Shown: positions 54,014 to 64,000 of the stretch, in pieces
Layout of the letters: every line of letters begins with the position of its first letter
Position numbering within the stretch: position 1 is the first letter of the stretch
From: Fibrobacter sp. UWB10
Lineage (GTDB): Bacteria; Fibrobacterota; Fibrobacteria; Fibrobacterales; Fibrobacteraceae
Length of the DNA stretch: 64,000 nucleotides
Direction of reading: 5' to 3'
Assembly: GCF_900182935.1 (NCBI RefSeq)
Contig: NZ_FXUE01000005.1
Location: forward strand, 124,001-188,000
Notes under the pieces: model-generated
Seen by the model: the letters and a program-made list of their open reading frames with translations, nothing else
Told to the model about the DNA's origin: nothing
The model's database searches: none
Translations under genes and position numbers: made by a program

Positions 54014-54592
54014 ATGATAAATGCATCACTGCAATTTTTAGCAGCACAGTTAAACCAGTACCTACGACGAAAGGCACAAACACAAGAAGATATCGTTGTT
54101 GTGTCGAGAATAATGGATAATGACGGCCGCGAATCGGAACATACAACCAACAAGCTCGTACTGTTTTTAACGAATGTCGAAAAAGATACGATGGCACACA
54201 CCAATTCGAAGCCGGAATACGATGGCTTTCGTAACATTGTGCGTTCAAAGCCCGTTTTCTTAAACCTGCACGTTGTTCTCGCAGCAAACTTCAAGCCAAA
54301 GCTTTACGAAGAATCGCTCAAATACTTGTCTAAGGCGGTCGGATTTTTTCAGGACCACAGCATTTTTGACCGCACAACATCTCCTGACCTAACCAATGGT
54401 CTCGAAAAGGTAATCATCGACGTAGAAAACCTGGACCTTCAGGAATTATGCAATTTGTGGAGTGTTACAGGCTGTAAATATGTACCCTCTGTCGTATACA
54501 AGGTTCGCACTGTTGCGCTCGGAAGCGGCTACTCTTATTACCGTCCATACGTCATTCACGTTCCAGACGATGCCGCTATCGGAGCCTTCTAA
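54014..54592 (+). CDS. DUF4255 (Pvc16-like) cap protein of contractile injection system
   Basis: The 192-residue protein resembles the DUF4255/Pvc16 family, which caps the tail end of Afp/PVC-type injection particles and of related phage-like tails. Visible family patterns are an N-terminal helix (SLQFLAAQLNQYLRR), a sheet with LVLFLTNVEKD and a central LNLHVVLAANFKPKLYEESLKYLSKAVGFFQ. It is the first gene of the cluster, unlike in Afp where the equivalent (Afp16) is last. The ATG overlaps nothing upstream; its stop overlaps the next start by one base (TAATG), implying coupling. Confidence 0.85.
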   Translation: MINASLQFLAAQLNQYLRRKAQTQEDIVVVSRIMDNDGRESEHTTNKLVLFLTNVEKDTMAHTNSKPEYDGFRNIVRSKPVFLNLHVVLAANFKPKLYEESLKYLSKAVGFFQDHSIFDRTTSPDLTNGLEKVIIDVENLDLQELCNLWSVTGCKYVPSVVYKVRTVALGSGYSYYRPYVIHVPDDAAIGAF

Positions 54593-55326
54593 TGAATTAC
54601 GGAATATGGGCAGACATTTTAGTAAGCCACGAGTACTTTTGTGGAAAGTACAGCGATTTCACTTTTGTTCCGGAGCTGGATTCTGAAACGACGATTCGCC
54701 GCGAAGGGTTCCTGATTCAAGAAGCAATCGGAGGCATTCGCCTGATTGCCCCTGAAGAAGCATTCGCAAGCAAAATTGAACTCGTTTTTTGGGTATATCC
54801 GACGGATCGCAACGTTTGGAGTGCGACCGACTTCGAAAACATTCCCGAAGACAGCATCGCCTTCGCCAAAATAAGCCAAGGTTCTTTGCAATGGGAATCT
54901 TGCACCAAGGATAAGATTCCCGAAAACATGCAAGTTCCAAAGCCCCTGTTCGGTATCGCTATAAGCAACCAGAACAACGTTGACAACAGCAGGGTCACCA
55001 TACCGCTCAAGACAAAGCACCTAAAATGGCGTTACAACATTTCCGGGCTATCCGTAAACAGGCCCGTGGAAATTGTAGGCTACAAGCCCAATACAGACGC
55101 CCCTTCTTTTGACATTGTCGAAGAGCACGCCGACACAATTGTCTTTATGTCGCAACAAGACATTCCCCTGCGTTACGGAGCCCCACCGCTTTTCCAATTG
55201 CGCGAAAAGAATTCTTCAAAGGCAATTATAAAATGCCTGCCGAACATGGACGCAAGATCCATCGCAACCGTTTGCCTCGATAAAAATAGGCGCGAAATTG
55301 TAGCAGAATCATTTATTAACACATAA
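54592..55326 (+). CDS. unrecognised protein of the injection cluster
   Basis: I do not recognise this 244-residue protein. It has no signal peptide or membrane segment and looks like an all-beta protein, with conserved-looking stretches FTFVPELDSETTIRREGFL and IRLIAPEE and a C-terminal beta-rich half with VNRPVEIVGYKPN and DIPLRYGAPPLFQLREKN. It is coupled to the cap gene by a one-base overlap and stands 22 bases before the sheath gene, so it is almost surely part of the particle or its assembly. A cap, adaptor or sheath-terminator role is a guess. Confidence 0.7.
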   Translation: MNYGIWADILVSHEYFCGKYSDFTFVPELDSETTIRREGFLIQEAIGGIRLIAPEEAFASKIELVFWVYPTDRNVWSATDFENIPEDSIAFAKISQGSLQWESCTKDKIPENMQVPKPLFGIAISNQNNVDNSRVTIPLKTKHLKWRYNISGLSVNRPVEIVGYKPNTDAPSFDIVEEHADTIVFMSQQDIPLRYGAPPLFQLREKNSSKAIIKCLPNMDARSIATVCLDKNRREIVAESFINT

Positions 55327-55348: not shown

Positions 55349-56788
55349 ATGTCTGCATCCTATAAAACCCCCGGCGTCTATCTTGTCGAAAAAGACGCCT
55401 TCCCCAGTTCCGTAGTGGAAGTTGCCACGGCAATTCCCATGTTTATCGGCTACACCGAAAAGGCCGAATACAAGGGTCAGTCCGTATTCAACAAGCCATT
55501 CCGAATTTCATCTTTCGCAGAATACAGAGCTGTATTTGGCGAAAGCGCCCTTATGCGCTTTACGCTCGAAGACGGCAAGGTAACGCCGCCCAAGGTACGT
55601 TTCCGCCTGTTTGATGCAATCCGCATGTTCTACCAGAATGGCGGCGCCTCTTGCTACATTATGTCGGTAGGCCCCTATGGTGAAGAAATTTCGGAAAAGG
55701 CCTTGACCGAGGCAATTGTCCCGTTCGAAAAGGAACAGGAACCCACCTTGGTCGTGATTCCTGAAGCGGTTTCGCTCGAATCGGCAGACGCATGCGCCAA
55801 CGTTCAGAACGCCATGCTCGCCCACTGCGCCAAAATGAAGAACCGTTTTGCCATTCTCGACGTTTATGACGGCTACAAGGAACCGCGCGAATGCATTTCG
55901 GACTTCCGCGAAAAGGTCACGAACTTCTTGAATTACGGTGCCGTTTACTATCCGTGGCTCAACACGAGCGTGGTTCAGTCGAACGAAGTGACTTTTGCCA
56001 ACGTTGAAAACGTAGACGCTTTGGCCAAGATGCTTACGGACGCCGTGCCCGCAGAACCCGCCACGAAGGCAGAACAGATTAAGGCCGAAATCGACAAGAT
56101 GGCTGCCGCCGACGTCAAGGACGAAGCTGCCGTGCAGACCATTCACCGCACGCTCTCGGTCATTTGTCCGAATTACGCCACCATTATGGACCTGGTTCGC
56201 GAACAGCTGAACCTGATGCCGCCTACTGGCGCAATCGCTGGTATTTACACGATGGTCGACAACTCCATCGGCGTTTGGAAGGCTCCGGCAAACGTTGGCG
56301 TGAATGGCGTGATTTCTCCGGCAATCAACCTCACCAACGAAGAACAGGAAGACTTGAACGTTCCTATTAACGGTAAGGCCGTTAACGCTATCCGCACCTT
56401 CGTGGGCGACGGCAACAAGGTTTGGGGCGCACGCACGCTCGACGGCAACAGCCTCGATTGGCGCTATGTAAACGTTCGCCGCACCATGATTATGCTCGAA
56501 GAATCCATCAAGCTCGCATCCAAGGCATTCGTGTTCGAACCGAACACCGCAAACACTTGGGTCACCATGAAGGGCATGATTAACAACTTCTTGACAAGCA
56601 TCTGGAAGCGTGGCGGCCTTGCAGGCTCTAGCCCGGCAGACGCATTCGAAGTGTACGTTGGCCTCGGCGAAACCATGACGCCCGAAGATATTCTCGAAGG
56701 TATCTTGCGCATTACGGTCAAGGTCGCTTTGATCCGCCCGGCTGAATTCATCGAAATCACATTCCAGCAACAGCAGCAAAAGTCCTAA
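55349..56788 (+). CDS. contractile tail sheath protein
   Basis: The 479-residue protein matches the phage/Afp/PVC tail sheath family: N-terminal KTPGVYLVEKDAFPSSVVEVATAIPMFIGYTEKA (1-40 region), a central insertion, and the conserved C-terminal domain with WGARTLDG, WRYVNVRRTMIMLEESI and a final long helix with WVTMKGMINNFLTSIW and IRPAEFIEITFQQQ. It forms the outer tube that contracts to drive the needle. Afp and PVC have three sheath genes; only one is present here. Ribosome site TAGGAGA precedes the ATG. Codon use is that of a highly expressed gene. Confidence 0.93.
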   Translation: MSASYKTPGVYLVEKDAFPSSVVEVATAIPMFIGYTEKAEYKGQSVFNKPFRISSFAEYRAVFGESALMRFTLEDGKVTPPKVRFRLFDAIRMFYQNGGASCYIMSVGPYGEEISEKALTEAIVPFEKEQEPTLVVIPEAVSLESADACANVQNAMLAHCAKMKNRFAILDVYDGYKEPRECISDFREKVTNFLNYGAVYYPWLNTSVVQSNEVTFANVENVDALAKMLTDAVPAEPATKAEQIKAEIDKMAAADVKDEAAVQTIHRTLSVICPNYATIMDLVREQLNLMPPTGAIAGIYTMVDNSIGVWKAPANVGVNGVISPAINLTNEEQEDLNVPINGKAVNAIRTFVGDGNKVWGARTLDGNSLDWRYVNVRRTMIMLEESIKLASKAFVFEPNTANTWVTMKGMINNFLTSIWKRGGLAGSSPADAFEVYVGLGETMTPEDILEGILRITVKVALIRPAEFIEITFQQQQQKS

Positions 56789-56803: not shown

Positions 56804-57262
56804 ATGGCAGAAGATGGATCTACTCAATCCGCAAGCATATGGCCCATGCCCAAATTCCACTTCCAGGTAAAGTGGGGCGACCAGGAAATGTCTTTCCAGG
56901 AAGTCACGGGTCTCGATGCTCAGTCCGAAGAAATCAAGTACCGTACCGGCGATAGCCCGATTTATTCCGTTATCAAGATGCCCGGCCTGATCAAGTACAG
57001 CAATGTTACTATGAAGAAGGGCATTTTCAAGGGCGACAATAAGTTCTGGGATTGGTTCAGCCAGATTAAGATGAATACGATCAAGAGGATCGATATTACA
57101 ATTAGCCTGCTGGACGAAGAAAATAACCCGGCTATGACTTGGACACTCAAGAACGCTTGGCCCACCAAGATTTCTGGTTATGAACTCAAGGCCGAAGGCA
57201 ATGAAGTTGCTGTCGAAAGCATCGAAATTGTCCACGAAGGCATGACGATTACTAACGGCTAA
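56804..57262 (+). CDS. inner tube protein 1 (T4 gp19-like / Afp1)
   Basis: The 152-residue protein is a tail tube (gp19/Hcp-fold) monomer: FHFQVKWGDQEMSFQEVTGLDAQSEEIKYR (17-47 region), KMPGLIKYSNVTMKKGIFKGD and the C-terminal EVAVESIEIVHEGM. It stacks as hexamers to form the rigid needle through which cargo passes. A strong GGAGG ribosome site precedes it. Followed after 8 bases by a second tube gene. Confidence 0.92.
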   Translation: MAEDGSTQSASIWPMPKFHFQVKWGDQEMSFQEVTGLDAQSEEIKYRTGDSPIYSVIKMPGLIKYSNVTMKKGIFKGDNKFWDWFSQIKMNTIKRIDITISLLDEENNPAMTWTLKNAWPTKISGYELKAEGNEVAVESIEIVHEGMTITNG

Positions 57263-57270
57263 GAAACCCC

Positions 57271-57723
57271 ATGGCAGATAAAGTCGAATGGCCGCTTCCT
57301 GTTGTGTTCCACTTTTCCGTAAAGCTGGGCAATTCAAAAGTTGCATTCAGCGAGGTATCCGGATTGGAAACCTCTATCGAGACAAAGGAAGTCCACAGCG
57401 GGGGCGACAATTCGACTGTCTACCATTTACCTCAAAAAGTAAAGTTTTCCGATTTAGTCCTAAAACGTGCCGTACTTTGCGAAAGCGACCCGCTTTACAG
57501 ATGGTGCACAAGCAGCATGAATTCCATGACGAACGCATTCAGGGTTACACCCAAATCAATCGAAGTAACTCTGTTAGACGAAAAAAACACACCCTTAGCA
57601 ACATGGACATTCAATGGTGCGTACCCTGTAAAATGGTCGTTCAGCACGCTTAACGCCATGAAGGGTGAAATCATGATAGAAACCTTGACGATGAAATACT
57701 GGAACGTGAAAAGGACTCTTTAA
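57271..57723 (+). CDS. inner tube protein 2 (Afp5-like)
   Basis: The 150-residue protein is a divergent paralogue of the first tube gene: FHFSVKLGNSKVAFSEVSGLE, KVKFSDLVLKRAVLCESDPLYRW and EIMIETLTMKYWNV. In Afp/PVC such a second tube protein (Afp5/Pvc5) forms the layer next to the baseplate. Its lower codon bias than the first tube gene fits a lower copy number. The next small gene starts one base past its stop. Confidence 0.88.
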   Translation: MADKVEWPLPVVFHFSVKLGNSKVAFSEVSGLETSIETKEVHSGGDNSTVYHLPQKVKFSDLVLKRAVLCESDPLYRWCTSSMNSMTNAFRVTPKSIEVTLLDEKNTPLATWTFNGAYPVKWSFSTLNAMKGEIMIETLTMKYWNVKRTL

Positions 57724-57724
57724 A

Positions 57725-57874
57725 ATGTCATTGGAAATCAAGAACCTCAGTATCAATGTCAGAATTGAAACGGACGAAAGCCTTCAAAAAGCGCCCGCAT
57801 CTCTTAAGGAAGATGTTTTAAAGGAATGCAAACGTTTAATTGAAGATTCCATGCGTCAGAATCAGGAGCGATAG
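57725..57874 (+). CDS. DUF5908-like small injection-cluster protein
   Basis: A 49-residue frame, ATG at 57725 to TAG at 57874, begins MSLEIKNLSINVRIE and ends in a charged helix (VLKECKRLIEDSMRQNQER). Size, shape and place between the tube and LysM genes match the DUF5908 / Afp6 position in known clusters, where a ~50-residue protein of unknown role occurs. The next gene begins 3 bases after its stop. It is too short for most gene finders. Confidence 0.75.
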   Translation: MSLEIKNLSINVRIETDESLQKAPASLKEDVLKECKRLIEDSMRQNQER

Positions 57875-57876
57875 TA

Positions 57877-58545
57877 ATGGACGGCCAAAATAAGATGACA
57901 TTCGAAGCTTTTCGTGAACACGACGGGCAGCTTTCGGCAATTAGCGATCGAAAGCCATTTACCGTTATGTTAAACCCAGACAGTCTGTCATTTTCAGCCT
58001 CAATCAACTACAGTAGTTATCGGGACACGGCTTACAGTGTTTACTCATCTCAATCTGCGCCTACCATTTCTATTCCGACAATTTATTTCGATACGACAGG
58101 AGTTGTTCCCAAAGAAGAATGGCCTCAAGGCTGTTCCACCATCAAGCAGATGGTAACTAAATTAAAAAAAGTCGTTTACGATTTTGATGGGGAGTCCCAC
58201 CAGCCGCCCGTCGTAAAATTAACCTGGGGCGACTACACCTATACTGTACGAGTTACAAAATTCGACGTCAAGTACACCCTATTCAACGTAACCGGCGAAC
58301 CCGTTCGAGCTGAAGTATCTATTGGAGCTAAATATTTTTATCTCGATTGGAAAAATACAGAAAAAAAATCTCCGGACTTAACGCACCTTGTAGAAGTTAA
58401 AGCTGGCGACACGCTCCCGCTCATGTGCAACCGAGTCTACAACGATTCTTCGTACTACCTTCAAATTGCACGAATCAACGGACTCACCAATTTCAGAAAT
58501 TTAAAACCTGGAACCATGTTGGAATTTCCACCAATTAGGGATTAA
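57877..58545 (+). CDS. LysM-containing tube/baseplate adaptor (Afp7/gp53-like)
   Basis: The 222-residue protein fits the CIS tube-associated family: FTVMLNPDSLSFSASINYSSY (29-49) and VVKLTWGDYTYTVRVTKFDVKYTLFN, then a C-terminal LysM-like module (about 172-222) with HLVEVKAGDTLPLMCNRVYNDSSYYLQIARINGL. Afp7/Pvc7 joins inner tube and spike. It ends 4 bases before the spike gene. Confidence 0.88.
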   Translation: MDGQNKMTFEAFREHDGQLSAISDRKPFTVMLNPDSLSFSASINYSSYRDTAYSVYSSQSAPTISIPTIYFDTTGVVPKEEWPQGCSTIKQMVTKLKKVVYDFDGESHQPPVVKLTWGDYTYTVRVTKFDVKYTLFNVTGEPVRAEVSIGAKYFYLDWKNTEKKSPDLTHLVEVKAGDTLPLMCNRVYNDSSYYLQIARINGLTNFRNLKPGTMLEFPPIRD

Positions 58546-58548
58546 TAT

Positions 58549-60330
58549 ATGCCAGAATCACCATTGAAAAATACCGGCGGAGTTGTTGAATGCGTTTTAT
58601 TTTGCAAGGGCAAAGCATTGCCATCGACCGCGCAAATTGTTACGGCCGACGTGGATTACCGAATCAACAGTATTCCTAAAGCGACCATCACCATTGCTGA
58701 CGGTGACATGCCTACCGGCAAATTCAACCTGTGCGAGGGAGACCAATTAAAGCCCGGCGAAGAAATAGAACTGAAAGCAGGCTACTCAACAGATCTTAAT
58801 TCCATTTTTAAGGGCGTAATCACACGTCTTGGAATTTCGGTATCAGAAGACGGCAAGAGTTGCACCAAAATAGAGTGTCGACACAAAGCCATCGCTCTCA
58901 CCGAATCGAGACATAACGCCAACTACCAAAATAAAAGCGACGATGACATTATCAGCGCCTTAGCTTCAAAATGCGGAGTCAATTCTTCTATTGGCGGCGG
59001 GCCCCATAAAGAACTGATGCAATACTACTGTACTGACTGGGACTTTATCATGACCCGCGCCGAAGCGAACGGTTGCTGGCTGCTTGCCGACCAAAGCGGT
59101 ACCACCATAGAACCTATCGCAGCCAAAGGAAATTCAGAACTTTCACTCACTTGGGGCACAGACATTATCGAATTCAACGCAAGTGTCAATTCAGAACACC
59201 AAGTGCAAAATGTAGAAGCCAGATCTTGGGACATTACCAAGCAAGAAATGATTTCCAATAAATCGGGCGTACAGTCTGTGCAAACGCAGGGGAACTTGAG
59301 TTCTAGCGACCTTGCAAAGGCACTTTCTATATCCGACCAGGTTCTACAAATCAATTCCCAAGTCGACAAAGGCATTTTGGGCACTTGGGCAAAAGCCGAA
59401 CAATTAAAGAACGAACTTTCGCGCATCAGCGGCAGCGTCAAATGCACCGGCAACGTGAAGGCGAATTTAGGCAAAATGGTAAAACTCGATTACTTGGGAT
59501 CGCGATTCAATGGCGACGCGCTTGTATCGGGAATTCACCATCACATGGAAGTCGGTTCATGGACAACGACCCTTTCTTTTGGAATGAAAAAAGAATGGTA
59601 TGTCGAAAAATTCAACACCATGGCACCGACGGCAGCAGGCTACAACTGCGGCATTACAGGGCTTTTAACGGGAATCGTTCTCCAAATCAGCGACGACCCC
59701 GACCAGCTCAATCGAGTCAAAGTCAAAATTCCCTTGATGCAAAACGAACAAGAGGGCGTATGGGCCCGCTTTGGAGTTCCTTACGCTTCGGAAGGATACG
59801 GGAGTCTGTTTTACCCCGAAGTCAACGACGAAGTGATTCTTGGATTCTTTAACGGAGACCCTTCTAGCCCCGTGATACTCGGGAGCCTGTACAGTTCTAA
59901 GCGGCAAGTTCCGCAGGAGCTTGAGAAAAAGAACAACACCAAGCAACTGCTAACTCGCGAAAAACTGAGCGTCACTTTTGACGAAGAAAAGAAATCGATT
60001 ACGGTTACGACTCCCGGAAATAGGAAAGTCGTACTGGATGACGACGGCAAAAAAATAACCCTAGAAGACCCCAACGGAAACAAGGTCGAAATGTCCGATA
60101 GCGGAATCAATCTCGAAACCAAAAAGGACGTTACCGTCAAAGCAACAGGAAAGTTCAAAGTCGACGCCAAGGGCGGTATTGAACTCAAATCGACCTCAGA
60201 CTTGAAAGCCGAAGGATTAAATGTAGAAATCAAGGCAAAAGTCGGGCTTAAAGCGCAAGGGACCGCAACTGCAGAATTTTCAGCATCAGGGCAGACCACC
60301 GTCAAGGGCGCCATGGTCATGATCAACTAA
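58549..60330 (+). CDS. VgrG-like spike protein (gp27-gp5 fusion, Afp8)
   Basis: The 593-residue protein has an N-terminal gp27-like hub (about 1-370), then the OB domain with the hallmark NRVKVKIPLMQ, EGVWARFGVPYA and NDEVILGFFNGDPSSPVILGSLYS, and a C-terminal beta-helix of repeating short strands (about 455-593, KVVLDDDGKKITLEDPNG, LKAEGLNVEIKAKVG). It punctures the target membrane. No extra effector domain is fused at the C-terminus. The following PAAR gene fits, as PAAR sharpens this spike's tip. Confidence 0.92.
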   Translation: MPESPLKNTGGVVECVLFCKGKALPSTAQIVTADVDYRINSIPKATITIADGDMPTGKFNLCEGDQLKPGEEIELKAGYSTDLNSIFKGVITRLGISVSEDGKSCTKIECRHKAIALTESRHNANYQNKSDDDIISALASKCGVNSSIGGGPHKELMQYYCTDWDFIMTRAEANGCWLLADQSGTTIEPIAAKGNSELSLTWGTDIIEFNASVNSEHQVQNVEARSWDITKQEMISNKSGVQSVQTQGNLSSSDLAKALSISDQVLQINSQVDKGILGTWAKAEQLKNELSRISGSVKCTGNVKANLGKMVKLDYLGSRFNGDALVSGIHHHMEVGSWTTTLSFGMKKEWYVEKFNTMAPTAAGYNCGITGLLTGIVLQISDDPDQLNRVKVKIPLMQNEQEGVWARFGVPYASEGYGSLFYPEVNDEVILGFFNGDPSSPVILGSLYSSKRQVPQELEKKNNTKQLLTREKLSVTFDEEKKSITVTTPGNRKVVLDDDGKKITLEDPNGNKVEMSDSGINLETKKDVTVKATGKFKVDAKGGIELKSTSDLKAEGLNVEIKAKVGLKAQGTATAEFSASGQTTVKGAMVMIN

Positions 60331-60642: not shown

Positions 60643-61047
60643 ATGAGCGCACTCACCTTTTTAGGCCGCGGATGGAAATTCCCGCTCAAATTCGAGAATG
60701 GCGCAGTCGCCATGTCTGAAGCCGATGAAGACATCGACGAAAGCCTGCGCATTTTGCTCGGGACCTACCCCGGTGAGCGCCTGATGCGCCCGACTTTTGG
60801 CTGTCGCCTGCGCGACTATTGCTTTGGCGACTACGGCGAAAACACCCTCGCACGAATCAAAGAAGAAATCGAGCGGGCCATATCCAATTTCGAGCCGCGA
60901 GTCGAAATTGAAAACATTGACACCAAAATGAATTTAACAGAGGACGTTCTAGAAATCAATATCATTTACAAGGTGATTGCCACCAACAGCCGCCGCAATT
61001 TAGTTTACCCGTTTTACATAAACGAAGGTACAGACGTTACAATTTAA
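60643..61047 (+). CDS. gp25-like baseplate wedge protein (Afp9)
   Basis: The 134-residue protein matches the GPW/gp25 family, which starts sheath assembly at the baseplate: FLGRGWKFPLKFENGAVAMSEADEDIDESLRILLGT (5-40 region), PGERLMRPTFGCRL with the conserved EPR-like segment, and AISNFEPRVEIENI. The ATG directly abuts the stop of the PAAR gene. Confidence 0.92.
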   Translation: MSALTFLGRGWKFPLKFENGAVAMSEADEDIDESLRILLGTYPGERLMRPTFGCRLRDYCFGDYGENTLARIKEEIERAISNFEPRVEIENIDTKMNLTEDVLEINIIYKVIATNSRRNLVYPFYINEGTDVTI

Positions 61048-61057
61048 GGGAATATTC

Positions 61058-64000
61058 GTGAATCGAAGCATCTTTGTCAGCGAAGGGTTAAGCCAAGAGG
61101 CCCGCAAGTTCAAGGAACTTGCGCAAGGTTTTGTCGCTATTAACGACATGACCCTTCAGCAGTTGCTCGAAAAAATCTGCGAATACGAACAGGAACGCGA
61201 AAGCACCCCGATTATAAACAAAGAAGACATTCCCCTTCTGGCAAATGCGATTGAATTTGAATCTGACGGCAACACGGAACCATCAAAAGCTCTTTACGCC
61301 GTCGTCGCAAAACTCTTAGGCCGAATTCAGGAACGTTTAAATCAGCTGCCCGATCGCCGAATTGATTTTTATTTTCACAAGGTATTAGGTCAAAAGCCAA
61401 ACGAAGCTCATGGGGATCACGCTCACGTCGTTATCCCCGTAGAATCAAGCGGATTCCGGCACAAGCTTTTAAAGGGCGCACGCTTTATCGCAGGCACTAA
61501 TGAAAACGGTGAACCCATCGAATACAAATCCGTAAACGATGTTGAACTGAACGACATTCAGGTGCAAAAAATCTACACCTTGGCCGTTCCCGAAAATGGA
61601 ATCCCCACGGTCACCGACATTCCGGTATACACGCCGGAACAAGCCCTCGAAAGTAAAGACCCTACCCCGTATCCACTTTTTGGACTCACCCGCTCTGGCG
61701 ACCGATCGGCCGCCTCACAAAACGCTCGTATCGGTCTAGCAGTATCCTCCAGACTGCTTTACTTGAACGACGGTATCCGACGTATTAAAGTAAAAATCTT
61801 CTTCGATACCGAAAGCGTCAAAGGAACCCTCCTCGAAAAGGGCCAGTCGCCAGAGCAATTTATCAAATTCTTCGAAAACGCCTTCCGCATTTCGCTTTCG
61901 ACAGCAGAAGGCTGGTACGATGTTGAAGGCTATCAGCTAGATTCGAACCTTCTTGACTCGCGCACTGAGCAGAATTGTATTGGGCTGACCATACAGCTTT
62001 CGGAAATGGTTCCGCCGATTGTGAACTGCGATCCGGCCATACATGGAGCCGAATTCGACATGCAAGGCCCTGCGATGAAAATCATCGTTATGCCGCGGAC
62101 CTCTTACAATTCTTGGAACACACTCCGAAAGCTTAAACTGCGCAAAATTTCATTGCAAGCCAAAGTCACCGGCAGCCGTCGGCTGGCACTCAGCAACGAT
62201 ATCGGCCCGCTTGCAACAAGCGCCCCGGTGCAGCCCTTTGGCCCCATGCCCGCCGTAGGCAACTCCTTCATTGTCGGCTGCGAAGAAATTCGCGGAAAGA
62301 GACTTTCTGCATTTAGCATTCACGGCAATTGGCGCGGGCTACCCAACGTCAGAGATTTTGGCGACTGGTACAGACTATACCCCGAAGCCCCGCTAACCCG
62401 CGATTTTAAAGTGGGCGTAAGCGCCCTTTTGGGAGGCACTTGGTACCCGTTCAGTTCGCAAGCAGCCATCGAGCAAAAGCTTTTCCAAATCGAGCCCGAC
62501 AAAATTTCAGACCAATTTTATTTGTCGTGCGACGACGTTCTCGGAGGCTGTTCCGCAAGCCAGACCTACGATGCCGAAAATTTTGAATACACACCCAGCG
62601 CCCGCGACGGATTTTTCAAGATAAAACTGATATCGCCCGAAAAAGGCTTTATGCATCAAGAATATTCAAAAGTCCTTTGCGGGAACTTGATGCAACAGGC
62701 CATCAAAAAGAATTTCGGTCAAGACTTTAATTTACCACAACAGCCTTACACGCCGGAACTTGAAAACCTGTCGATTGACTACACTGCGACAGCAGAAATT
62801 AACTTGCGACATTCCGACAACAGCGATGGCGATTTCATCTACTTGCGCCCATGGGGCGTTAGCAAAAGATCGCAATTGCAGCTAGAAGGCGGCGCATTGC
62901 TCTTAGGGCTTGCCAATGCCAAGGCCGCCAAGAGCGTCAACCTGTATTTCGTATTAAATCGCGATTCCGATTACATTTACAACAACGAAGACTGCACCTA
63001 CACTTGGTCTTACTTGGGCGCTAACGGCTGGACAAAGCTCCCTGCCGACAACATTCTATACAATACAACCGCCCACTTTACCACATCGGGAATTGTTTCG
63101 CTCACGCTCCCAAAAGATTTCCAGACCGATTCGCCGCTAATGCCCGAAGGGCTATGCTGGTTACGCCTAGAAACCCAAAAGTGCTGGCGGCATTGCAGCC
63201 GTTTGTTTGCGGTGTATGCACAAGGCATCGAAGTCGTGCGCTGCAGCGGATTTGGCACCAAGGAAAGTTTCAAGCATTGCAAGCCCGGAACCATTAACGA
63301 ACTCGCCCAAAGTATTAGCGGCTTTTCGCAGGTTTTCCAGCTCGAAGAATCTTTTGGCGGCGAGCCTGAAGAAAACCAGAGCGAAATGCGGACACGAGTT
63401 GCAGAATACCTGTACCACCGCGACCGCGCCTTGACCGCAAAAGACTGCGAAAAACTGATTTTAGAGCAATTCCCCGAGGTGCACCTTGTCAAGTGCTTTG
63501 CTTGCCTAGACCCCGAAAAGCCAGACATTCCAACTCCCGGACAAATCCTTGTTGTACCTGTATCGTCTTTGTTCGACGACGGTCGCCGTGTATGGGACCC
63601 ATGCCTTAGCGGAAAAACCCTAGAAGACATCAAAATCTTTTTGAGCCAAAGGACCTCTTCTTTCTCAAAAATCTCGGTCATGAACCCGTTATTCGAAAAA
63701 ATTCAAATCCGCTGCAATGTGGATTTTATCAACGGAATCGACGAGGGCGAACGCCTTTTGGACCTAAACAAAGTAATCAACTGTTTTCTGTCACCGTGGA
63801 GTAATTCCCACCCCGAACACTTTTTCGGATGGTCGCTCAACAAGCAACACCTTTTATCACTTATCGAAAGTTTGCCCTATGTCAAAGCCGTCAGCGACTT
63901 CACGGTACTCAGAATTTGTTCGAAAGACAACTGCAATTATAACATGGAGGAATCCGACGAAAAGAATATTGGCTATATTCAAGGAACATATCCCTGGAGT
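61058..64000 (+). CDS. baseplate J-like protein (Afp11), C-terminus outside the window
   Basis: An uninterrupted frame from a GTG at 61058, behind AAGGG, runs to the window end: at least 981 residues. Segments such as LALSNDIGPLATSAPVQPFGPMPAVGNSF, YLRPWGVSKRSQLQLEGG, VAEYLYHRDRALTAKDCEKLILEQFPEVHLVKCF and GQILVVPVSSLFDDG fit the gpJ/Afp11 baseplate family, and length and position also fit. It would form the wedge arms of the baseplate. The rest of the cluster (Afp12-15 equivalents, fibres, cargo) must lie beyond the edge. Confidence 0.85.
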   Translation, partial: MNRSIFVSEGLSQEARKFKELAQGFVAINDMTLQQLLEKICEYEQERESTPIINKEDIPLLANAIEFESDGNTEPSKALYAVVAKLLGRIQERLNQLPDRRIDFYFHKVLGQKPNEAHGDHAHVVIPVESSGFRHKLLKGARFIAGTNENGEPIEYKSVNDVELNDIQVQKIYTLAVPENGIPTVTDIPVYTPEQALESKDPTPYPLFGLTRSGDRSAASQNARIGLAVSSRLLYLNDGIRRIKVKIFFDTESVKGTLLEKGQSPEQFIKFFENAFRISLSTAEGWYDVEGYQLDSNLLDSRTEQNCIGLTIQLSEMVPPIVNCDPAIHGAEFDMQGPAMKIIVMPRTSYNSWNTLRKLKLRKISLQAKVTGSRRLALSNDIGPLATSAPVQPFGPMPAVGNSFIVGCEEIRGKRLSAFSIHGNWRGLPNVRDFGDWYRLYPEAPLTRDFKVGVSALLGGTWYPFSSQAAIEQKLFQIEPDKISDQFYLSCDDVLGGCSASQTYDAENFEYTPSARDGFFKIKLISPEKGFMHQEYSKVLCGNLMQQAIKKNFGQDFNLPQQPYTPELENLSIDYTATAEINLRHSDNSDGDFIYLRPWGVSKRSQLQLEGGALLLGLANAKAAKSVNLYFVLNRDSDYIYNNEDCTYTWSYLGANGWTKLPADNILYNTTAHFTTSGIVSLTLPKDFQTDSPLMPEGLCWLRLETQKCWRHCSRLFAVYAQGIEVVRCSGFGTKESFKHCKPGTINELAQSISGFSQVFQLEESFGGEPEENQSEMRTRVAEYLYHRDRALTAKDCEKLILEQFPEVHLVKCFACLDPEKPDIPTPGQILVVPVSSLFDDGRRVWDPCLSGKTLEDIKIFLSQRTSSFSKISVMNPLFEKIQIRCNVDFINGIDEGERLLDLNKVINCFLSPWSNSHPEHFFGWSLNKQHLLSLIESLPYVKAVSDFTVLRICSKDNCNYNMEESDEKNIGYIQGTYPWS

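What the first reader, a model, noticed from the sequence alone, without database searches (positions are those of the whole stretch)
54592..55326. Unrecognised beta-rich protein coupled to the cap gene
This 244-residue protein lies between the DUF4255 cap and the sheath, with one-base overlap to the first. I know no named Afp/PVC part with its features, so it may be a lineage-specific component or an adaptor that allows use of one sheath type.
Basis: partly seen in the sequence, partly recalled or inferred. Interest (0 to 1): 0.65.

Follow-up and report, generated by a model that had tools for sequence, protein, structure and literature searches.

The report
Cap adaptor of a contractile injection system
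The unnamed protein is the Fibrobacter version of a known part, the 'cap adaptor' (Alg16B/Cis16B), the ring that joins the cap of a phage-tail-like protein syringe to its contractile sheath; it is an ordinary part that simply has no family model in the databases.

Summary
The ORF is real: 54592-55326, 244 codons, sharing one base with the DUF4255/Pvc16_N cap gene and lying 22 bases before the sheath gene, inside a complete eCIS cluster. Profiles of its relatives, however, match all three solved cap adaptors over most or all of their length: Algoriphagus Alg16B (7adz, E 6e-36), Anabaena Cis16B (7b5i, E 1.5e-32) and SalCis16b (9r9n, E 3e-24). The predicted structure (pLDDT 92.7) has the first two as its best PDB fold matches. 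The same gene follows the cap in 24 of 28 Fibrobacterota cap loci (21 of 21 in the genus) and 23 of 30 sampled Bacteroidota loci. It is therefore a short member of a known family, not a lineage-specific novelty. One surprise: some Fibrobacter genomes that have lost the rest of the machine keep the adaptor gene. In one pair it shows 24 synonymous but only 2 amino-acid-changing differences.

The parts
54014..54592 (+). Cap protein, Alg16A/Cis16A type (Pvc16_N / DUF4255), 192 aa; short form without the C-terminal domain of Afp16/Pvc16
   Evidence: Pfam PF14065 E 3e-34; PDB 9r9n_B E 2.4e-29, 7b5i_AA E 2e-14, 7adz_0A E 8e-8
54592..55326 (+). Cap adaptor, Alg16B/Cis16B type, 244 aa (the finding)
   Evidence: Profile matches to 9r9n_C, 7adz_1A and 7b5i_AB; AF2 model pLDDT 92.7; Foldseek PDB top hits 7b5i_AB E 8e-11 and 7adz_1A E 9e-9; conserved slot
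55349..56788 (+). Single contractile sheath protein (Cis2 type), 479 aa
   Evidence: Pfam PF04984 E 2.8e-12, PF17482 E 5.7e-12
56804..57262 (+). Inner tube protein 1
   Evidence: Pfam PF06841 E 6e-49
57271..57723 (+). Inner tube / tube initiator protein 2
   Evidence: Pfam PF06841 E 4e-36
57725..57874 (+). Small DUF5908 protein, 49 aa, in the position of the Cis6/Alg6 spike plug (inferred)
   Evidence: Pfam PF19265 E 8e-7
57877..58545 (+). LysM / CIS_tube tube-initiator protein (Cis7 type)
   Evidence: Pfam PF19266 E 1.3e-28
58549..60330 (+). Spike (VgrG-like, Cis8 type)
   Evidence: Pfam PF04717 E 1.9e-23, PF05954
60343..60642 (+). PAAR spike tip (Cis10 type)
   Evidence: Pfam PF05488 E 4e-25
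60643..61047 (+). gp25-like sheath initiator (Cis9 type)
   Evidence: Pfam PF04965 E 2.4e-22

Best explanation
The protein is the Fibrobacter cap adaptor of an extracellular contractile injection system, orthologous in kind and position to Alg16B (AlgoCIS) and Cis16B (Anabaena). By analogy with the solved structures, six copies form a ring at the end of the particle far from the baseplate: the protein's N-terminal part grips the C-terminal tail of the cap (54014-54592) and completes the handshake of the last sheath ring (55349-56788), locking tube, cap and sheath in the extended, loaded state. When the sheath contracts the ring is expected to be released. Shown here: homology, predicted fold, gene slot and co-occurrence with the sheath. 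Inferred from the relatives: six-fold ring, contacts, stabilising role and release on firing.
For: Profile of 18 Fibrobacter homologues matches SalCis16b over its full length, E 8e-12. A profile widened with Betaproteobacterial and Bacteroidota homologues matches SalCis16b 2e-21, Alg16B 1e-4 and Cis16B 1e-3. With 41 members it matches Alg16B 6e-36 (284/284 residues), Cis16B 1.5e-32 and SalCis16b 3e-24, with no other PDB hit at E<=1. AlphaFold model pLDDT 92.7, pTM 0.85; Foldseek top two of 350,542 chains are 7b5i_AB E 8e-11 and 7adz_1A E 9e-9, both prob 1.00. The cap next door is the short Alg16A-like form that goes with an adaptor (PMC8894135). The slot is conserved in 21/21 Fibrobacter cap loci, 24/28 in the phylum and 23/30 in Bacteroidota. 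All 13 Fibrobacter genomes with the sheath also have the adaptor. Function of Alg16B, including the deletion phenotype and its absence after firing, from PMC8894135 and PMC13314943; two-part cap in Anabaena from PMC8894136.
Against: Single-sequence search finds no PDB relative; homology to Alg16B and Cis16B only shows through profiles, at about 10% identity. Whole-chain TM-scores are modest (0.51-0.58 on the query) with high rmsd, as expected if domain angles or insertions differ. No experiment on a Fibrobacter particle is known to me. Intact adaptor genes in genomes without cap, tube or eCIS sheath do not fit a purely structural role.
Confidence: 0.95

Rival explanations
1. A lineage-specific eCIS component with no counterpart in known systems.
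For: No Pfam, NCBIfam, PHROG or single-sequence PDB match; protein search among 101 relatives finds it only in the genus.
Against: Profile and fold matches to three solved cap adaptors; same slot in other phyla.
Confidence: 0.02
2. A cap adaptor specifically tied to single-sheath clusters, doing the work of the extra sheath types of Afp/PVC.
For: The window cluster has one sheath; AlgoCIS and Anabaena CIS have one sheath and an adaptor (PMC8894135, PMC8894136).
Against: L044 (G087) has three sheath genes and an adaptor (E 4.9e-16) beside its cap; several Bacteroidota clusters have cap directly followed by sheath with no adaptor found.
Confidence: 0.03
3. The cap adaptor has a second role outside the particle, for example regulation or protection against a foreign injection system, which is why some genomes keep it after losing the machine.
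For: Intact orphan copies beside a LuxR-type gene in genomes without Pvc16_N, eCIS tube or eCIS sheath; 24 synonymous vs 2 nonsynonymous differences between two orphans whose cap loss predates their split.
Against: Another copy is broken by a frameshift (G018:C43) and two orphans keep only fragments of the cap, as in ordinary decay after a deletion; only one close pair gives an informative count; genomes are draft or MAGs and recombination with intact copies is possible.
Confidence: 0.2

Closest known systems
Alg16B, cap adaptor of AlgoCIS (Algoriphagus machipongonensis; PDB 7adz chain 1A; PMC8894135, PMC13314943)
   Same: Gene partner of a short Pvc16_N cap; full-length profile match (E 6e-36); matching predicted fold (E 9e-9); one-sheath cluster.
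   Different: 244 aa instead of 284; about 11% structural-alignment identity; shorter N-terminal domain loops.
Cis16B / All3326, cap protein of the thylakoid-anchored Anabaena CIS (PDB 7b5i chain AB; PMC8894136)
   Same: Second protein of a two-part cap, terminates the sheath; profile E 1.5e-32; best fold match E 8e-11.
   Different: 399 aa with a long insertion that is absent here; about 10% identity.
SalCis16b (PDB 9r9n chain C)
   Same: Closest by sequence: full-length match already with the Fibrobacter-only profile (E 8e-12); similar size (260 aa); its cap partner 9r9n_B is also the closest solved cap (E 2e-29).
   Different: No paper on it was found in the library; organism and particle not verified here.
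Afp16 / Pvc16 C-terminal domain (Afp, PVC)
   Same: Also at the cap end, linked to the cap's N-terminal domain (PMC8894135).
   Different: Part of the cap polypeptide in Afp/PVC, and arranged vertically instead of parallel to the cap domain (PMC8894135); no sequence match found here.

Membership tests
Alg16B/Cis16B cap adaptor of CIS | Sequence homology to solved cap adaptors over the whole chain | tested here: met
   7adz_1A 6e-36, 7b5i_AB 1.5e-32, 9r9n_C 2.9e-24, none of them used to build the profile
Alg16B/Cis16B cap adaptor of CIS | Fold: Ig-like N-terminal domain with extra helices plus a C-terminal beta-barrel | tested here: met
   AF2 model pLDDT 92.7; Foldseek top hits are 7b5i_AB and 7adz_1A, prob 1.00. 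Domain geometry not compared in detail
Alg16B/Cis16B cap adaptor of CIS | Encoded with a short Pvc16_N (DUF4255) cap lacking the Afp16 C-terminal domain | tested here: met
   Cap 192 aa, Pvc16_N covers residues 7-172; one-base overlap; conserved in 21/21 Fibrobacter cap loci
Alg16B/Cis16B cap adaptor of CIS | Present wherever the matching sheath is present | tested here: met
   13 of 13 Fibrobacter genomes with the sheath have it
Alg16B/Cis16B cap adaptor of CIS | Hexameric ring contacting cap and the last sheath layer; loss gives uncapped or aberrant particles; released on firing | not testable with these tools
   Known for Alg16B (PMC8894135, PMC13314943); needs cryoEM or a deletion strain here
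Afp16/Pvc16 cap (single-protein cap) | Pvc16_N domain in the protein itself | tested here: not met
   No Pvc16_N match in the 244-aa protein

The most novel reading that the evidence does not exclude
In some Fibrobacter lineages the cap adaptor has been kept, under purifying selection, after loss of cap, tube and sheath, so this protein family may have a function independent of the particle (for example a regulatory role with the neighbouring LuxR-type gene, or interference with injection systems of other cells).
Probability: 0.2. Interest if true: 0.55.

Novelty: new member of a known kind. Interest (0 to 1): 0.22.

Why it matters
It gives a name to a gene that current annotation leaves blank in many eCIS clusters, because no Pfam, NCBIfam or PHROG model of the cap adaptor was found; a model built from these sequences would annotate it across Fibrobacterota, Bacteroidota and some Betaproteobacteria. 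It shows that the Fibrobacter eCIS has the two-part cap of the AlgoCIS/Anabaena type instead of the single-protein cap of Afp/PVC. The orphan copies raise a small testable question about whether the adaptor has a life outside the particle.

Tried and rejected
Pfam, NCBIfam, PHROGs and single-sequence PDB searches gave nothing for the target. Single-protein search in 101 relatives found only same-genus copies, which would have suggested lineage specificity; this was an effect of sensitivity and went away with profiles. Viral fold library: no match at E<=0.001, so no phage counterpart was identified. Foldseek hits beyond rank 2 are generic Ig-fold proteins with low TM-scores and were ignored. 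Pfam DUF6834_C and DUF3244 touched 3 and 1 of 41 members weakly and were not followed. Literature search for 'SalCIS' found no paper; no paper describing a Fibrobacter eCIS was found with the terms tried. The promoter/terminator scan around the gene was at shuffle level and not used.

Full report
Observation. The ORF at 54592-55326 on the + strand is intact, starts with ATG and encodes 244 aa. It overlaps the upstream ORF 54014-54592 by one base (TAATG at 54590-54594). That upstream gene is the DUF4255/Pvc16_N cap (E 3e-34) and the next gene, 55349-56788, is the sheath. The rest of an eCIS follows: two gp19-type tube proteins, a 49-aa DUF5908 protein, a CIS_tube/LysM protein, VgrG-like spike, PAAR and gp25. 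Beyond the window's end, in the same contig, come several proteins without Pfam matches in the place of the baseplate, then a CIS tape-measure protein, an AAA ATPase and two proteins with the eCIS_core domain typical of eCIS cargo.

Why it looked unrecognised. Pfam, NCBIfam and PHROGs have no model that matches it, and none of 41 gathered homologues gives a useful Pfam match either. A single-sequence search of the PDB finds nothing. The window lies in a Fibrobacter genome: near-identical and related loci are titled Fibrobacter in the public records.

What it is. Eighteen homologues from the genus (29-57% identity) give a profile whose only significant PDB match is 9r9n_C, named SalCis16b cap, over its full length (E 8e-12). 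Adding homologues from Nitrosomonas, Undibacterium, Gallionellales and a Bacteroidetes MAG, each lying directly after a Pvc16_N-like cap, gives a profile that also reaches Alg16B of AlgoCIS (7adz_1A, 1e-4) and Cis16B of the Anabaena system (7b5i_AB, 1e-3). A 41-member profile matches all three decisively: 6e-36, 1.5e-32 and 2.9e-24, with no other PDB sequence at E<=1. None of the three was in the profile. Independently, the predicted structure of the window protein (pLDDT 92.7, pTM 0.85) has 7b5i_AB (E 8e-11) and 7adz_1A (E 9e-9) as its two best PDB matches, both with probability 1.00; the third hit is at 5e-4 with TM 0.21 and the rest are generic Ig folds. A first model from the 18-member alignment gave the same two top hits. 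The cap next door is likewise of the short Alg16A/Cis16A kind: 192 aa against 197 in Alg16A and 293-295 in Pvc16/Afp16 (lengths from PMC8894135), with its best PDB matches in the same three complexes.

Distribution and slot. In Fibrobacterota (168 genomes searched), 26 genomes have a Pvc16_N cap at 28 loci; an adaptor homologue adjoins the cap at 24 of these, including all 21 in Fibrobacter. The four exceptions lie outside the genus; the three with enough flank to see carry a differently starting sheath (MPEYL... or MPQYL... type). In the 30 best of the Bacteroidota cap loci (77 of 396 sampled genomes have a cap), 23 have a detectable adaptor in the slot, and one of the others (L086) has a divergent protein there with a similar opening motif; five have the sheath directly after the cap. 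Within the 100 nearest relatives plus the window's genome, all 13 Fibrobacter genomes with the sheath also have the adaptor.

Mechanism. In AlgoCIS, a hexamer of Alg16B links the cap Alg16A to the most distal sheath layer; its N-terminus and the cap's C-terminus imitate the sheath handshake. Without it, particles lack cap and distal sheath layer, or are tube-baseplate complexes or jammed (PMC8894135). After firing, the space between cap and sheath shrinks and Alg16B is released, so it is thought to lock the loaded state (PMC13314943). In Anabaena, Cis16A terminates the tube and Cis16B the sheath (PMC8894136). I infer the same role here. The one-base overlap with the cap gene fits coupled, near-equal production of two proteins that would be used six copies each (inference).

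The 'one sheath type' idea. The Fibrobacterota genome G087 has three successive sheath genes and a 372-aa adaptor homologue (E 4.9e-16) beside its cap, and several Bacteroidota clusters show no adaptor at all. The adaptor therefore does not simply track sheath number, though I made no full tally.

An unexpected side result. Four of the searched Fibrobacter genomes have an intact adaptor but no eCIS sheath or tube (G001, G026, G046, G050); three of them have no cap gene either (G001 has distant phage-type sheath matches on other contigs). In G026 and at a second site in G037, fragments of the cap gene remain beside the adaptor, which points to deletion of a former cluster. Intact clusters occupy the same site, next to a LuxR-type gene, in other genomes (L008, L016, L017). 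G001 and G046 share a colinear upstream region (93.5% identity over 613 bases) without cap, so the cap was lost before they split; yet their adaptors differ by 24 synonymous and only 2 nonsynonymous changes (167 and 562 sites). This suggests selection on the protein without its machine. Against this, one extra copy in G018 is frameshifted, and the evidence rests on one pair of draft genomes. I treat it as a lead.

Verdict. This is a new, short member of a known kind, the CIS cap adaptor. Interest is low to moderate, raised slightly by the missing family model and the orphan copies.

Noticed in passing
L031:8001-8732 (+), L046:5601-6332 (-), L033:8001-8735 (+), L037:7591-8325 (+), L048:7290-8024 (-): Orphan cap-adaptor genes in Fibrobacter sites that have lost the rest of the eCIS (L048 still has the cap). 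G001/G046 pair: 24 synonymous vs 2 nonsynonymous differences, so apparently still under selection.
   Followed up: partly
L036:7983-8730: A further orphan adaptor copy in G018 is split by a frameshift, i.e. a decaying copy, in a genome that has an intact eCIS elsewhere.
   Followed up: partly
L008, L016, L017, L031, L033, L046: The eCIS site of one Fibrobacter lineage is flanked by a divergent LuxR-type (GerE) gene with TPR-like repeats, and in orphan sites by a DUF1353 gene and an HD-domain gene; possibly the eCIS regulator.
   Followed up: partly
57725-57874: A 49-aa DUF5908 ORF between the second tube gene and the CIS_tube/LysM gene, in the position of the Cis6/Alg6 spike plug.
   Followed up: partly
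61058-64000 and on (L107:559-5705): The baseplate-position genes (1024, 263 and 431 aa) match no Pfam family; the first runs off the window end.
   Followed up: no
L107:8101-10302, L107:10554-12596, L107:13068-14267: A 733-aa protein with a signal-like N-terminus and two eCIS_core (PF13699) proteins, likely cargo, close the cluster beyond the window.
   Followed up: no
L044:9112-15846: A Fibrobacterota genome (G087) with three consecutive sheath genes together with a cap and a 372-aa cap adaptor.
   Followed up: partly
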